Below, piece by piece: positions 58,459-64,000 of a DNA stretch of 64,000 bases (position 1 is its first letter; each line of letters opens with the position of its first letter). The notes beneath the pieces were generated by a model. That model had not been told where the DNA came from and did no database searches. It worked only from the letters and a program-made list of their open reading frames with translations. This DNA comes from Acetobacter ascendens. GTDB lineage: Bacteria > Pseudomonadota > Alphaproteobacteria > Acetobacterales > Acetobacteraceae. Made by a program: the position numbers and the translations under genes. Where the stretch lies: assembly GCF_001766235.1 (NCBI RefSeq), contig NZ_CP015164.1, positions 992,001 to 1,056,000 of the forward strand. Reading direction: 5' to 3'.

Positions 58459-59749
58459 GGAGGGATCGAAGAACCCTTGATTGATGTGCTTGGCCGGTAA
58501 TTTCTGGGTTTTGGCGATTTGATTGACAGTTTTTGCGATGGCGTCCAGTCTGCGTTTTGAGCAGATTGGGAGTTGTCTCTCGCTGGATGGCTATGCGCTC
58601 GCGTTCAATCTTTCGAGGAAGAGGAGGCGGCGCATATTGTAGACGATATTGGCGAGCCCGATCCTCATGGTGGCTCGACTGATACCGACAGTCCGGACAA
58701 ACAGCCCCGTCTGTGACTTCTGATCGGCAAAGACATGCTCGACACGCGAGCGGATGACCGACTTTCCAGCATTTGATTTCTGGATATGCCGGGGCATAGG
58801 CTTGAGATGCGGCTTTTTGCGATGAACCTTGGAAACAAAGCCCTGCTTTTCCATGAAGTCTTCGTTGGCTTTTGAGCGATAGGCCGTGTCGGCCCAGACA
58901 CTTGAGGCCGTATTGGTTTTATCCAGAAGCCCCTCTCTCAATCGCGCGCCATCACTGGCAGCGGCATGCGTTGTTTTCCATTTGCGGATGAACCGGTATT
59001 TCCGACCGATGGAAACATGCGATTTATAGCCAAAGAACGGGATGGCGAGATCGCTGGATGGCATGGTTCCATCATCCTGCCGCTTCGCCTTCGTGAACTT
59101 CAGTGTCCAGCGCGCATGACGATCCTTGTGCGACAGCTTTGCGGGTTTGTCCTGCCAGTCTTCAGGAATACGGCCTGCTCGCAGATCCGCTTTCTCTGCA
59201 TTGGTGTTCCGCTGCTTCGGAGCCGCTACCAGCGTGGCATCCAGGATCTGGCCTGACATCGGCAAATACCCGGCGTTACGCAGGGTCGCATCAAAGCGGT
59301 TGAACAGCCCATCGATCGCACCCGCCTGGGTCAGACGCTTTTGACACAGCCAGACCGTTTTGGCATCCGGCACCCGATCTGAAAGTCCCAGCCCAAGGAA
59401 ACGCATAAAGGAGAGGCGATCGTTGATCAGATATTCCGTCCGCTCATCAGACAAATTGTTGAGCGTCTGGATCACCAGGATCTTGAACATCAGCACAGGA
59501 TCAAATGGCGGTCGTCCGCCCTTGCTTCCATCGGAATACGCCAGGGTCTTGTCCAGATCAGGACGGAACGCTTCAAAATCCACAGTCCGGGAAAACGCTT
59601 CGAGCTGATCGCCAAGCCCACTCAGCCGGGCAAGGCGCTCTTCAACATCAAAGAAACCAGGCTGCTTCATATCGCCATTCCCTCAATCAACGCAGAAGAA
59701 ATAGAATCATACAGAAGACCTCAAAACCAGGGGGTTTTTAGAACCCTCC
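58459..59749 (-). mobile_element. IS5-family element (1,291 bp), uninterrupted copy
   Basis: Ends GGAGGG and CCCTCC. Left flank AGTT, right flank AGGT: not a duplication. The SDR gene stops at the left end and nothing of it reappears on the right, where a G+C-rich region begins. The element therefore marks a recombination or deletion junction. Confidence 0.9.
58591..59670 (-). CDS. IS5-family transposase (359 aa)
   Basis: Complete copy, nearly identical to the split transposase at 16149 (VWLCQKRLTQAGAIDGLFNR variant) and more distant from that at 44473. All DDE residues present. Confidence 0.94.
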   Translation of the reverse strand: MKQPGFFDVEERLARLSGLGDQLEAFSRTVDFEAFRPDLDKTLAYSDGSKGGRPPFDPVLMFKILVIQTLNNLSDERTEYLINDRLSFMRFLGLGLSDRVPDAKTVWLCQKRLTQAGAIDGLFNRFDATLRNAGYLPMSGQILDATLVAAPKQRNTNAEKADLRAGRIPEDWQDKPAKLSHKDRHARWTLKFTKAKRQDDGTMPSSDLAIPFFGYKSHVSIGRKYRFIRKWKTTHAAASDGARLREGLLDKTNTASSVWADTAYRSKANEDFMEKQGFVSKVHRKKPHLKPMPRHIQKSNAGKSVIRSRVEHVFADQKSQTGLFVRTVGISRATMRIGLANIVYNMRRLLFLERLNASA

Positions 59750-60012
59750 AGGTCCTGTTCTTCACCCATCATCCACATCTTGTGGAGATCGCAAAGTCGG
59801 TCGTCGGGCGCGAGATGCACTCCGAGTGCTCATTGTCGTGACGGCAATCGGCGGCCGAGGGGACGTGACGGTATCCGTAACATCCGTCGAACCCGCCTAA
59901 CATTCCGTGCGGGGAATCGTCGACGATAAACGCGGGCCGAGCTAATCGGGATGTAGCCGAATTGATCGACAGTCACCGGGGGCGACACGGATCTGACCGG
60001 TCGCCCGCCGCC
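59750..60012. other. Unassigned G+C-rich region downstream of the RloC-like gene
   Basis: 263 bp between an IS end and the stop of the RloC-like gene. Higher in G+C than the Acetobacter-like flanks. Only short frames, none recognised. It probably belongs to the same acquired segment as the RloC-like gene. Confidence 0.45.
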
Positions 60013-60686
60013 TCACGCCGCTGGGGCCGAAGCTGGCGTGCCCTGAGGTGGAGATGCCGCTTCGACGGCGGCAGGGTGCGTCTCGCCTTCCGCCGGCTCG
60101 CCCTCGTCCTCGTCGCTGATCCGCATCATCATGCTGTAGTGGGCGATATGACCGGTTTTCTCAAAGACCTGCTCGAACACGCGAAGGTAGCTCTGGACGG
60201 CGTTGTCGTCGGCTGCCAGATAAATGTCGTCGTGCGCGCTGTGAGACCCGTCATTGATCCATGAGAACAGCGAGGCGCAGACTTGGGCGTCGCGACCGGT
60301 GAAGAGCGCGACAATGGCATCCTGTTTCCAGCCGCCGAGGACAACGAGATAGTTCTCGACGATCCGCCGCAGCGTGTTCTGGATGGTGAGGTTGGCGCGC
60401 TCGGAATTGCGCACGTCCTCCCAGAGCAGCTCGTAGGATGTCTTCACCGGATTGAACGCGTAGTGGTGAAGCGACGAGACGTTGTCGCGCTTCCGCACTA
60501 CCCAGAAAGTCTCGTCCCGTCGGCAACCTGAGGCGGGGCGATCCCGATCGTAGCTCACCTCCTTATGAAAGTAGATGTTATGCGTCAGCACAAAGACCTG
60601 CCGGACCGAGCCCTTTCCGGCGCGCACATCGCCGACCACCTTCCGGATGAGCGCGCTGACGATGAACAGAACATCGGAATCTAGGC
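60013..60686 (-). pseudogene. RloC-like ATPase/anticodon nuclease, 3' part
   Basis: Residues 542-765. Completes the Walker B/D-loop (FDDPVS|SLDSDVL across the insertion) and adds the H-loop VFVLTHNIYFHKE. The C-terminal domain has RRIVENYL, where Arg648 and Glu652 have the i, i+4 spacing of the Arg-Glu pair of PrrC/RloC anticodon nucleases, and INDGSHSAHDD with His690 as candidate third catalytic residue. The tail is Ala/Pro/Glu rich. Stop at 60013. Known RloC proteins cut a tRNA anticodon loop when activated by DNA damage or phage; activity here is inferred. Confidence 0.85.
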
Positions 60687-60690
60687 TCGA

Positions 60691-62355
60691 CGCGGATTTC
60701 TCACACTTGAGGCAATTTCGGGTCATTTTGTAGAATTCAGTCATCCCACAGGAGCCCGATCTGGAATATTGACGATATTCTGCTTCTGGCAGCGGGTTCT
60801 GAACGCAGTGAGGGTGTCACGGCCTGAGAAGGCAGTGTTGGTGGAAGCTATGTGGTCTGTGCACTGTCTGTTTCTTCAGATGGCCTGCCGGAGCCTTCGC
60901 AATCGTGCATGAGCGAGGGCGAATTCATGCTGACAGGGGAACATGTCCGGCATGGACAGGACAATCCGACGGACGCTGAGCGTTACACGTGTCGCGATTT
61001 TGAGCAGTCGTGCGCGTATGGTGCCACAGGTCGCCGTCTCCAGGCTGGTCTGGCCAAGGGCCAGTCTTTGCAGAGCGGTCAGCAGGACATAGGCAGCGGC
61101 CGAGAACCACAGCCGGAGCTGGTTGGCCCGGATGGTGTGGGACGAGGTCCTGTCTGAGAACAGATCCATCTGGCATTCCTTGATGCGGTTTTCCATATCC
61201 CCGCGTGCGCAGTAAATCTGTTCGTAGAGATGGCGGGGGTCGGACATTCCCTGCGGTAGCGTGGTGACAATAAAGCGATGATAGCGGTTGCCGTGGCGCC
61301 ATTCGGCCTTGGCCACGACCCGCCTGCGGCGCGTCCAGCTGTCCTTTGTGATCCAGTCAAAGGAGGCAAAGCCGCGCGCCGCTTTGCCTGTCGTGGCGGC
61401 TTCGTCACGAACCTCAGCGGACAAAGAGGCAATCCGGTCATACAGGCGGGTGTTGCCTGCAAGCCCAAACAGGAAGTCAACGTGGTTGTCTTCGCACCAT
61501 GTCATCAGACTGTCCCGGGCGAAACCGCTGTCCCCACGCACCAGGATACGCACCCGGGGCCAGCGGCTCCTGATCTGCTCCACGATCCGGCGGATGTCTG
61601 CCAGTGCTTCCTTCCCCGGGTCCCTGTCTGCCGTGCGCAGGGTAGCGCTAAGGAGATGGTCCCCGCAGAAGACATACAGGGGAAGATAGCAGTTATGGCC
61701 GTAATATCCATGAAAGGCCCGGCCTTCCTGATGGCCATGGATACGGTCATCGGTGGCATCCACATCCAGAACGATCCGGGCGGGTGCGCGCTCATGCTGG
61801 TCCATGAAAAGCGTCACGAACAGGGTAGCCAGGGCCTCATGATCAGCAATGATGCGGCAGTAACGATCTGCCTGCTGCCCACTGCGCTCCAACCGGTTCA
61901 GCGTGGATTTTCCTGCCAGTGCCGCACAGTTGGCCCGGCTTCCTGACAGACGTCCCGATACCAGACCCATGACAGGATCATGACGTAAAGCGTCATGGTC
62001 ATTAAGGTCTTCATAGCCCAGTGCCAGGCCCATGATCCGCTGACGGACAAGGTCTTCAACCCGGTATTCCACAAAGCCGGGATGCCGCTTATCGCGAAAA
62101 CAGGCAGCAAAGCGGCGGCTGAGCCCCAGAATGTCATCAGCCTGCTTCACCAGAATGACACCGCCATCCGAACTCATGCGACCCCCGTCAAAACGGGCCA
62201 CAACACGCCGTCCACAGGAGGCTGGAAACTCATACGCGCCTGCGCTACACTCTGTCTGCATCGGGTTTTCTTATAGCTTATGAAAATATCTTTTCTACAA
62301 AACAGACTTTTTCATAATCTAACCCGATGTACAACCCTTCTGTGAGATTTCCGCG
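60691..62355 (-). mobile_element. IS1380, complete copy F, in RloC-like gene
   Basis: 1,665 bp with TCGA on both sides (60687-60690, 62356-62359). The insertion is exact: removing it plus one TCGA restores DDPVSSLDSD. Confidence 0.96.
60876..62261 (-). CDS. IS1380 transposase
   Basis: 461 aa, intact, of the QADDILGLS variant like the copy at 6709; one change near residue 58 (FRDKRHPGF for FRDERHPGF). Confidence 0.95.
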   Translation of the reverse strand: MQTECSAGAYEFPASCGRRVVARFDGGRMSSDGGVILVKQADDILGLSRRFAACFRDKRHPGFVEYRVEDLVRQRIMGLALGYEDLNDHDALRHDPVMGLVSGRLSGSRANCAALAGKSTLNRLERSGQQADRYCRIIADHEALATLFVTLFMDQHERAPARIVLDVDATDDRIHGHQEGRAFHGYYGHNCYLPLYVFCGDHLLSATLRTADRDPGKEALADIRRIVEQIRSRWPRVRILVRGDSGFARDSLMTWCEDNHVDFLFGLAGNTRLYDRIASLSAEVRDEAATTGKAARGFASFDWITKDSWTRRRRVVAKAEWRHGNRYHRFIVTTLPQGMSDPRHLYEQIYCARGDMENRIKECQMDLFSDRTSSHTIRANQLRLWFSAAAYVLLTALQRLALGQTSLETATCGTIRARLLKIATRVTLSVRRIVLSMPDMFPCQHEFALAHARLRRLRQAI

Positions 62356-62359
62356 TCGA

Positions 62360-63979
62360 GACGGGATCGTCGAACACCACCACCTTATCGGCTGTAGTGC
62401 CTGAGCCGGATGTGCTGCCGGCCAGCATGTGATAGAAGTAGAGGAAGGTGATGAACGACCGCTCGCCTTCGCTCAACGTCTTCGCGGCGTCGGATCCATC
62501 GAGACGAACGATCCGGTACATATCCCCGCGCTCGCTAGCGACGGCCAGCTTGAAGCTGGTGAAGCCGAATGAGAAGAGGATGCGGTTGATCTCGTCAACC
62601 GTCGGCTTAACGCTCGTGATACTAGCTTCCTTGGCCTTCAACTGAGCATCGAGCCGCGCACGCTCGCCCTTCTTTTCTGCGATCTTGGCTTCGAGGCCCT
62701 CGATCATCTTGCCGAGCTTGGTCGCTGACGCGTCGTACGTTGTAAGGTCGGTCCGGCGCTCCTCGACAATGAAGCGCCATACCTGCGAGGTCAGGGTGCG
62801 TTTCGACTTCGACAGGTCACGGATGGTCTCGTTGTATTCATCGATCACGGTGTTCGCCTGCATCAGCAGATCGCTGATCGCGCTCGCGAACTCCTTCGTA
62901 TACTCGAGCGTGATCTCGCTGCTGGGTTCGCGACGCTTCGCTACCAACCACTCGTGGTTGAGTTCGAACGCCGTCTTCAGGGCGTGGTAGCGCTCGGTGA
63001 GTGTCTCCGAATCGATAAACCTGCCAGGCGAGGCCACGAGGACATCGAGGCGATCACACACGGCCTTCGTGGCTGCTTCGTAGCGTGTGGACAGTTGCGC
63101 GATCTCTGCGAGATCCGCCTTATACTGCTCGTCGAAGAATGCGTTCAGATCTTCGATCAGATTCGCCGGGGCAACCTGCTGGCAGAATGGGCACGAGCCG
63201 TCCGCTGCCGCAAGATACTCCACGCCCTGCTTGACCCAGTCGCTGTTGCCCAGCCGACCTATCAGGGCCGCAACGACGACGTCGTCACGGCCGACAATCT
63301 TCCGTCCGAGGATCGCCGACTTTTCCAAGGTGGGGAAGGCGGTGAAGGCGATCGGCTGGATAGCGGCTTCCGGCGGCGTTGCATCCTTAAAGACGGTCGC
63401 GGCGCGCACGATGAGATCCTCAAGGGTGGCGACGTCGGTGTTGTTCTCCGCAGCCTCCTTCAGCACCTTGTCGCAGAAGGCGACCTTGCCATGGCGGTGG
63501 CCGGTCATGGCTTTCTCGAAAACCGCCTTGTGGGCTTGCTGCGATTTCCAGCATGCCTCGTCGAGGAGCGATCGCGCGTCTGCAAGATCCTTACGGCTAC
63601 CTCCCGTGCCATCGTCGCCTTCGAGCTTTTGGCGCAGCCCGCCGATTTCGCGGTCGAGCTTGCCGATCTGCTGCTGCAGGCTCTCGATCTTCTCGACGGC
63701 TTTCGTTGAATCCTCGCCGAGTGTGAAGATGCCCTTCAGCTGCTCTCCGAAGTTGGCTTCGGCGAAATCACGGTTGTAGACGAGTGTCGCTATCGCCCGG
63801 CCGTCCTTCCATGAGACGCTATAGCCGGCACGGACGGCAGGATCGTGGATGGCGCGGGATACAGTGGTCTTCCCGCAGCCATTGTGACCGAAGAGGTAGT
63901 TGATTTTCTTGAGGTCGGTGAGCGTCTCACCTGCGGCTGGATATGTCGCCTCGCCAGCAATCCCAATTAAAGTCAGCAT
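62360..63979 (-). pseudogene. RloC-like Zn-hook ATPase/anticodon nuclease, 5' part
   Basis: Residues 1-540 of a 765-aa protein, the size of RloC (about 800) and twice that of PrrC. AAA_13-type ABC ATPase head with Walker A GHNGCGKTT (31-39). Coiled-coil predicted by eye at about 95-135 and again at about 400-450; between the coils is SCPFCQQ with Cys263 and Cys266, like the CxxC zinc hook that separates RloC from PrrC. ABC signature LSEGERSFITFLYF near 500 and Walker B VVVFDDP near 533-539. The ATG at 63979 follows GGGGG. No hsd genes are in view. G+C is clearly above that of neighbours, suggesting transfer. RloC-type proteins are translation-disabling phage-defence factors. Confidence 0.87.
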
Positions 63980-64000
63980 CTACGCCCCCAAGAAATGGAC

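What the first reader, a model, noticed from the sequence alone, without database searches (positions are those of the whole stretch)
60013..63979. RloC-type Zn-hook anticodon nuclease knocked out by a clean IS1380 insertion
The restored 765-aa frame has an AAA_13 ATPase head, a CPFC zinc-hook motif between coiled coils, and a C-terminal R-x3-E plus INDGSH motif resembling the catalytic set of PrrC/RloC. RloC is a suicidal tRNA-cleaving defence protein. The insertion lies exactly in the D-loop between the Walker B motif and the nuclease, so the ATPase part could still be made without the nuclease. The region is G+C-rich and bounded by an IS junction, suggesting an acquired island.
Basis: partly seen in the sequence, partly recalled or inferred. 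Interest (0 to 1): 0.72.

Follow-up and report, generated by a model that had tools for sequence, protein, structure and literature searches.

The report
Defence nuclease gene split by transposon
A vinegar-bacterium-type genome carries a gene for a known kind of self-harming anti-virus enzyme, apparently picked up from a distant relative, and a common jumping element has split it in two, so it is very probably dead.

Summary
Two in-frame pieces of one gene (63979-62356 and 60686-60013, minus strand) flank a 1665-bp IS1380A copy (60691-62355) with TCGA on both sides. Searched apart, the pieces match Pfam AAA_13 at 3-536 and 539-713 and PADLOC PDC-S06 at 1-535 and 538-728. The nearest intact allele found (Stakelama pacifica) is 90.8/90.2% identical in DNA, its two matches overlapping by the 4-bp target. 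The published sequence marks of RloC are met: ABC motifs, CPFC hook, R-x3-E-x37-H with Ser before His, 765 codons. It is an RloC-type gene, not found in 48 congeneric genomes, knocked out by an abundant IS. Nuclease activity is inferred.

One claim fails: the split lies inside the ATPase head, so neither half is a complete ATPase. New point: a diverged rloC on an Acetobacter ascendens plasmid is broken by the same IS in the same Walker B/D-loop stretch, beside an intact twin. IS1380A prefers TCGA, and the conserved motif codons cluster TCGA sites, which may explain this. Known kind of protein, ordinary kind of inactivation.

The parts
62356..63979 (-). rloC-type gene, 5' piece (start codon at 63979; ABC head N half, coiled coils, CPFC zinc hook, signature, Walker B, first Ser codon of the D-loop)
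   Evidence: AAA_13 positions 3-536, E 8.7e-116; PDC-S06 model PDLC04890 1-535, E 3.9e-175; match to single-ORF homologues
60013..60686 (-). rloC-type gene, 3' piece (rest of D-loop, H-loop, C-terminal domain with the proposed nuclease triad, stop)
   Evidence: AAA_13 positions 539-713, E 2.8e-46; PDLC04890 538-728, E 1.4e-85
60691..62355 (-). IS1380A, 1665 bp, same direction as the gene
   Evidence: at least 42 near-full copies in the own genome, this one included; 96.4-98.7% identical in the 15 listed Acetobacter plasmid records, most of them annotated IS1380A
60876..62261 (-). IS1380A transposase, 461 aa
   Evidence: DDE_Tnp_1_4, E 1.3e-151
60687..60690 (.). target duplication TCGA, left copy
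62356..62359 (.). target duplication TCGA, right copy
   Evidence: one TCGA in the intact alleles L025 and L022, where the two BLAST pieces overlap by 4 nt
63182..63193 (-). CPFC zinc-hook motif
   Evidence: CxxC in 145 of 149 single-ORF homologues
60355..60369 (-). R-x3-E of the proposed nuclease triad
   Evidence: first R in 146 of 149, E in 142 of 149
60241..60249 (-). Gly-Ser-His; His of the proposed triad, 37 residues after Glu
   Evidence: H in 112 of 149 and S in 117 of 149 in the wide alignment; both invariant in 73 closer ones
60013..60744 (-). 243-aa ORF whose ATG lies in the IS and runs in frame into the 3' piece
   Evidence: no minus-strand sigma-70-like site found in 60600-61200
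62312..63979 (-). 555-aa ORF: 5' piece (541 residues) plus 14 residues read from the IS, then stop

Best explanation
This is an RloC-type gene (ABC ATPase with coiled coil and zinc hook, plus a C-terminal domain with the RloC/PrrC nuclease motif) that entered an Acetobacter-like chromosome from outside the genus, the nearest alleles found being in Sphingomonadales, and was then inactivated by a single insertion of the resident IS1380A into a TCGA in the D-loop codons. Before the insertion it most likely worked like characterised RloC: the Rad50-like head responds to DNA breaks or phage action, and the C-terminal domain then cuts tRNA anticodon loops and stops translation (inferred from relatives, not tested). 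Now the head is split between two reading frames separated by 1.67 kb, so no working protein is expected. Shown here: the split, the exact target duplication, intact relatives, the motifs. Inferred: origin, former activity, loss of function.
For: Adjacent profile positions in the two halves; in 158 of 162 loci holding both pieces they are in one ORF, each time with exactly two residues between them; intact alleles at 90.8/90.2% and 87.9/86.9% DNA identity with a 4-nt overlap at the site; published RloC sequence criteria met; another copy of the IS in the genome is reported as 100% identical (rounded) over query 7-1680, so the insertion looks recent; 20 of 24 equal 4-bp flanks of this IS in the genome are TCGA; no good match in the other 99 of 100 relatives, 48 of them congeners.
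Against: No assay of tRNA cleavage. The catalytic His is aligned in only 112 of 149 homologues; some misses may be misalignment, which I did not check. The structure model of the intact relative has low confidence at the active site (pLDDT below 50 at 685-697; 95-103 of the C-domain model) and the C domain has no significant PDB match. No characterised RloC sequence was compared directly. A 2025 survey calls RloC's function unknown and found it associated with phage susceptibility (PMC12447246, passages).
Confidence: 0.88

Rival explanations
1. The halves are both translated and reassemble into a working split RloC, the 3' half starting at the ATG supplied by the IS.
For: The IS supplies an in-frame ATG giving a 243-aa ORF; neither piece holds an internal stop; some IS1380-family members drive neighbouring genes (recalled, from no call).
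Against: No minus-strand sigma-70-like site in 60600-61200; no clear ribosome-binding site in the 40 nt before the ATG (my reading); the break separates Walker B from the rest of the D-loop and the H-loop; in the A. ascendens case the corresponding IS ATG is out of frame with the 3' piece (my reading).
Confidence: 0.03
2. The protein was never an anticodon nuclease but another AAA_13/PDC-S06 defence ATPase with a different C-terminal activity.
For: AAA_13 and PDC-S06 are broad labels; the C-domain fold search gave nothing significant; His is aligned in only 112 of 149 homologues.
Against: R-x3-E-x37-(S)H, CxxC hook and size all meet the published RloC definition; R, S and H are invariant in the 73 closer homologues; RloC/PrrC C domains are described as HEPN RNases (PMC3710099, passages).
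Confidence: 0.15
3. The shared place of IS1380A breakage in two diverged rloC genes reflects selection against this part of the protein, not target preference alone.
For: Two events in alleles 41% (5' piece) and 60% (3' piece) identical in protein, both in the Walker B/D-loop stretch and in the same orientation.
Against: Three of 18 TCGA sites of the intact A. ascendens twin and two of 25 of the window allele lie there, so target preference alone gives a second hit in that stretch with a chance of roughly 0.08-0.17; only two cases; an insertion at many other sites would also inactivate the gene.
Confidence: 0.1

Closest known systems
RloC (Geobacillus kaustophilus; Acinetobacter baylyi ACIAD0152)
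   Same: ABC ATPase head split by coiled coil with CxxC hook; C-terminal R-x3-E-x36-52-H; 658-897 aa; only 8 of 72 mapped to a type I or III R-M locus (PMC2610378, passages read; PMC3874168, passages read)
   Different: The window gene is interrupted by IS1380A; no activity tested; sequences of the characterised proteins were not compared here
PADLOC PDC-S06 (candidate defence family)
   Same: Model PDLC04890 covers both halves, 582 and 286 bits
   Different: A candidate label; I found no mechanism for it (one search listed four papers; one passage read, a table entry). The window copy is broken
PrrC
   Same: ABC ATPase plus R-x3-E...H domain (PMC2610378, passages)
   Different: PrrC is 341-416 aa, without the zinc-hook insert, and linked to a type Ic hsd locus; here a hook is present and the genome's two HsdR_N matches are on other contigs
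IS1380 gene knock-outs in Acetobacter
   Same: Same IS family member; IS1380 is named in a reference title as involved in loss of ethanol oxidation (Takemura 1991, reference entry only); transposons truncate 32 genes in A. pasteurianus IFO 3283 (PMC3751514, passage)
   Different: Here the target is an acquired defence-type gene

Membership tests
RloC | Length 658-897 aa | tested here: met
   765 codons by adding the two pieces' lengths; alleles L025 and L022 translate to 755 and 764 residues
RloC | ABC ATPase motifs (Walker A, signature, Walker B/D-loop, linchpin His) | tested here: met
   All located; the positions counted are kept in 144-149 of 149 homologues
RloC | CXXC zinc hook between helical coiled-coil regions | tested here: met
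   CPFC 263-266; CxxC in 145 of 149; in the model of the intact relative L022 long helices at 92-154 and 274-452 lie either side; no coiled-coil predictor was run
RloC | C-terminal R-x3-E-x36-52-H, Ser often before His | tested here: met
   R-x3-E-x37-H with Ser in the window gene; R, E and H together in 110 of 149 homologues, 103 at spacing 37
RloC | tRNA anticodon nuclease activity, wobble nucleotide excision, Zn-responsive | not testable with these tools
   Needs an assay
RloC | Sequence relation to a characterised RloC | not tested
   No characterised RloC sequence was compared; four Streptococcus prophage records with a 26.9% identical match are annotated translation-disabling ACNase, the one opened as RloC
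PrrC | Short (341-416 aa), no hook, linked to type Ic hsd | tested here: not met
   Hook present, 765 codons; HsdR_N matches only on C2 and C3, the gene is on C1
PADLOC PDC-S06 | Match to a PDC-S06 model over its length | tested here: met
   PDLC04890 1-535 and 538-728 of 732, pieces searched apart
HEPN superfamily | HEPN fold of the C domain | tested here: inconclusive
   Model of L022's C domain is helical after a beta hairpin; weak PDB matches 7bxo_G E 0.6 (that it holds a HEPN toxin is recalled) and 2hsb E 1.7 (titled HEPN), none at E 0.001 or better
IS1380 family, IS1380A | About 1665 bp, 4-bp duplication, DDE transposase, identity to annotated IS1380A | tested here: met
   (length and duplication size as family marks are recalled)

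The most novel reading that the evidence does not exclude
The conserved Walker B/D-loop codons (Phe-Asp-Asp-Pro-x-Ser-Ser-Leu-Asp) of G+C-rich ABC-type defence ATPases form a cluster of TCGA sites that acts as a natural hot spot for IS1380A, so Acetobacter repeatedly silences incoming RloC-type genes at their most conserved motif.
Probability: 0.2. Interest if true: 0.4.

Novelty: new member of a known kind. Interest (0 to 1): 0.25.

Why it matters
It documents the arrival and loss of a potentially costly self-harming defence gene in an IS-rich bacterium, with a close intact allele elsewhere and a parallel case (intact and broken twins on one plasmid) that could be used to ask how often and where ISs switch off such genes. 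Otherwise it is ordinary genome decay.

Tried and rejected
Conserved partner gene: by my criterion 62 of 158 single-ORF loci have a close same-strand downstream ORF (loci cut by contig ends were not set apart), and the largest group is five (methyltransferase-like by eye, not scanned), so I see no general partner. The DUF3223 gene overlapping rloC was scanned in Erythrobacteraceae WH01K only.

PDB by sequence: no match for the 5' piece, one chance match for the 3' piece (E 0.49), and one weak match (E 0.005, an ABC transporter) for a six-sequence profile. Foldseek with the intact relative's full model: Rad50/SMC heads lead (best E 2.8e-08, whole-length TM 0.19), which fits the ATPase part only. 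The viral library gave mainly Rad50/SbcC/SMC-like and unnamed proteins among the 50 shown.

dN/dS against intact alleles (0.157 and 0.084 for the two pieces against L025) shows past purifying selection but cannot date the loss, since the comparison mixes time before and after the insertion.

Full report
Observation. The minus strand of 60013-63979 holds a long open frame (62312-63979, 555 aa), a transposase (60876-62261, 461 aa) and a second open frame (60013-60744, 243 aa). The element between the two gene pieces begins CGCGGATTT at 60691 and ends ATTTCCGCG at 62355, 1665 bp, with TCGA on each side. The own genome (3.0 Mb, 4 contigs) holds at least 42 near-full copies, this one included, and four partial matches. 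I fetched all 42 and could score both ends of 34 with different flanks: 24 have identical 4-bp flanks, 20 of these TCGA; 10 have unequal flanks; 8 were not scored. The 54 plasmid records with a near match to 59700-64000 are Acetobacter (51) or Komagataeibacter (3), and most of the 15 listed are annotated IS1380A, so the host is most likely Acetobacter; the window itself is unnamed.

One gene in two pieces. Searched apart, the 5' piece matches AAA_13 positions 3-536 and the 3' piece 539-713 of 713; PADLOC PDC-S06 model PDLC04890 is matched at 1-535 and 538-728 of 732. NCBIfam gave five matches far below their cut-offs for the 5' piece and none for the 3' piece. Homologues came from plasmid records (151 with the 5' piece, 74 with the 3' piece), genome contigs (best 80 of 344 kept) and viral contigs (best 80 of 102 kept). 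Of the 180 loci then held (several of them the window's own genome), 171 match the 5' piece and 162 both; in 158 the two lie in one ORF with exactly two residues between them. The other four are the window's own locus, the A. ascendens copy (L015), L050 and L126; the last two were not examined. Nine loci matched the 5' piece alone.

Intact relatives and origin. Stakelama pacifica DSM 25059 (L025) is 90.8% and 90.2% identical in DNA to the two pieces and Sphingomonas sp. A2-49 (L022) 87.9% and 86.9%; in both, the two BLAST pieces overlap by 4 nt, the single TCGA of the uninterrupted gene. Of 100 relatives (one genome per species, the window's own included) only three had any match: the window's own and two weak ones (28.2 and 20.6 bits) outside the family; none of 48 congeners. 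In 299 genomes of the family 12 had a match, five of them above 100 bits, the window's own included. The pieces have G+C 0.60-0.61 and third-position G+C 0.77. This supports acquisition from outside the genus; the donor is not identified. Upstream, 133 bp of homology to L025 (83%) continues on the far side of a further IS that ends about 35 bp before the start codon, so the gene has probably lost its promoter contact too (inference).

RloC marks. The published definition is an ABC ATPase split by a coiled coil with CXXC hook, C-terminal R-x3-E-x36-52-H with Ser often before His, 658-897 aa (PMC2610378, passages). The window gene has GHNGCGKTT, CPFC, LSEGE, VVVFDD, LDSD, LTHN, RRIVE and GSH; E to H spacing is 37. 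In 149 non-identical single-ORF homologues (a few partial, the shortest 383 aa) the hook is kept in 145, R in 146, E in 142 (Asp in 7), S in 117 and H in 112; R, E and H together in 110, 103 of them at spacing 37. I did not check how many of the His misses are misalignment. In 73 closer ones R, S and H are invariant and E nearly so. The model of L022 (mean pLDDT 81.4, pTM 0.51) has a head whose best PDB matches are Rad50 complexes; the Ser-His region is of low confidence. The C domain modelled alone (pLDDT 77.4) found no PDB match at E 0.001 or better; 7bxo_G (E 0.6) and the HEPN protein 2hsb (E 1.7) were among weak ones, as were many unrelated proteins. The HEPN claim for RloC/PrrC is from PMC3710099 (passages).

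Effect of the insertion. The IS lies at the Ser-Ser codons of the D-loop. The 5' product would end 14 residues into the IS; it lacks LDSD and the H-loop. A 243-aa frame starts at an ATG inside the IS and runs into the 3' piece, but the scan found no minus-strand promoter-like site in 60600-61200. One other copy of the IS is reported as 100% identical (rounded), so the event looks recent.

Parallel case. Acetobacter ascendens plasmid pAP1447-1 carries two related R-M cassettes (hsdM, a nucleotidyltransferase and its substrate-binding partner, hsdS, hsdR, rloC), 89-94% identical in the matched blocks, with most of hsdS unmatched. One rloC is intact (73505-75772; L241) and the other (L015) is broken by IS1380A, itself holding an IS3-family transposase. 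The intact twin is 41% and 60% identical to our two pieces in protein. The broken twin lacks 21 nt between the first and third of three TCGA sites in the Walker B/D-loop stretch, as read against the intact twin, and its 5' part also has a stop within a gap-free alignment. Both IS copies run in the gene's direction. The intact twin has 18 TCGA sites, three in this stretch; the window allele 25, two in the stretch. Target preference alone would thus place a hit there with a chance of roughly 0.08-0.17, so two cases do not prove selection.

Literature. RloC is a described anticodon nuclease, activated by a DNA break inducer in A. baylyi (PMC3874168, passages), and is listed among predicted defence systems in genome surveys; one of these calls its function unknown and found it associated with phage susceptibility (PMC12447246, passages). 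IS1380 is described as abundant in A. pasteurianus strains, and 280 transposons as involved in the truncation of 32 genes in IFO 3283 (PMC3751514, passage). A search for RloC with insertion sequence and defence (15 of 1,136 partial matches seen, titles and abstract starts only) and one for IS1380 with TCGA and target (none) showed me no paper on IS disruption of rloC; this is no proof that none exists.

Verdict. A correct and careful reading of a new, broken member of a known family; interest is modest.

Noticed in passing
L241 4498-13773 and L015 1-11206 (NZ_CP021525.1): Two related copies (89-94% in matched blocks) of a type I R-M cassette with an embedded nucleotidyltransferase/substrate-binding pair and a terminal rloC sit on one Acetobacter plasmid, one rloC intact and one broken.
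   Followed up: partly
L009 about 515-1572 (starts about 14 bp beyond the window end): An IS630-like element (label recalled) sits about 35 bp upstream of the rloC start codon, separating it from upstream sequence shared with Stakelama.
   Followed up: partly
L013 8241-9008: A DUF3223/DCL-family gene overlaps the end of rloC in Erythrobacteraceae WH01K; in L023, L024 and L026 a shared ORF, not identified, follows the rloC stop directly.
   Followed up: partly
L101-L180: RloC-type genes turn up in contigs classed as viral (102 confirmed relatives, 80 kept) and in nine phage records, four of them annotated translation-disabling ACNase in Streptococcus prophages.
   Followed up: no
G000:C1:1220232-1223574 and G000:C1:2219844-2223186: IS1380A copies occur as two directly abutting pairs.
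   Followed up: no
L050, L126: Two further relatives have the 5' and 3' pieces in different ORFs; cause not examined.
   Followed up: no
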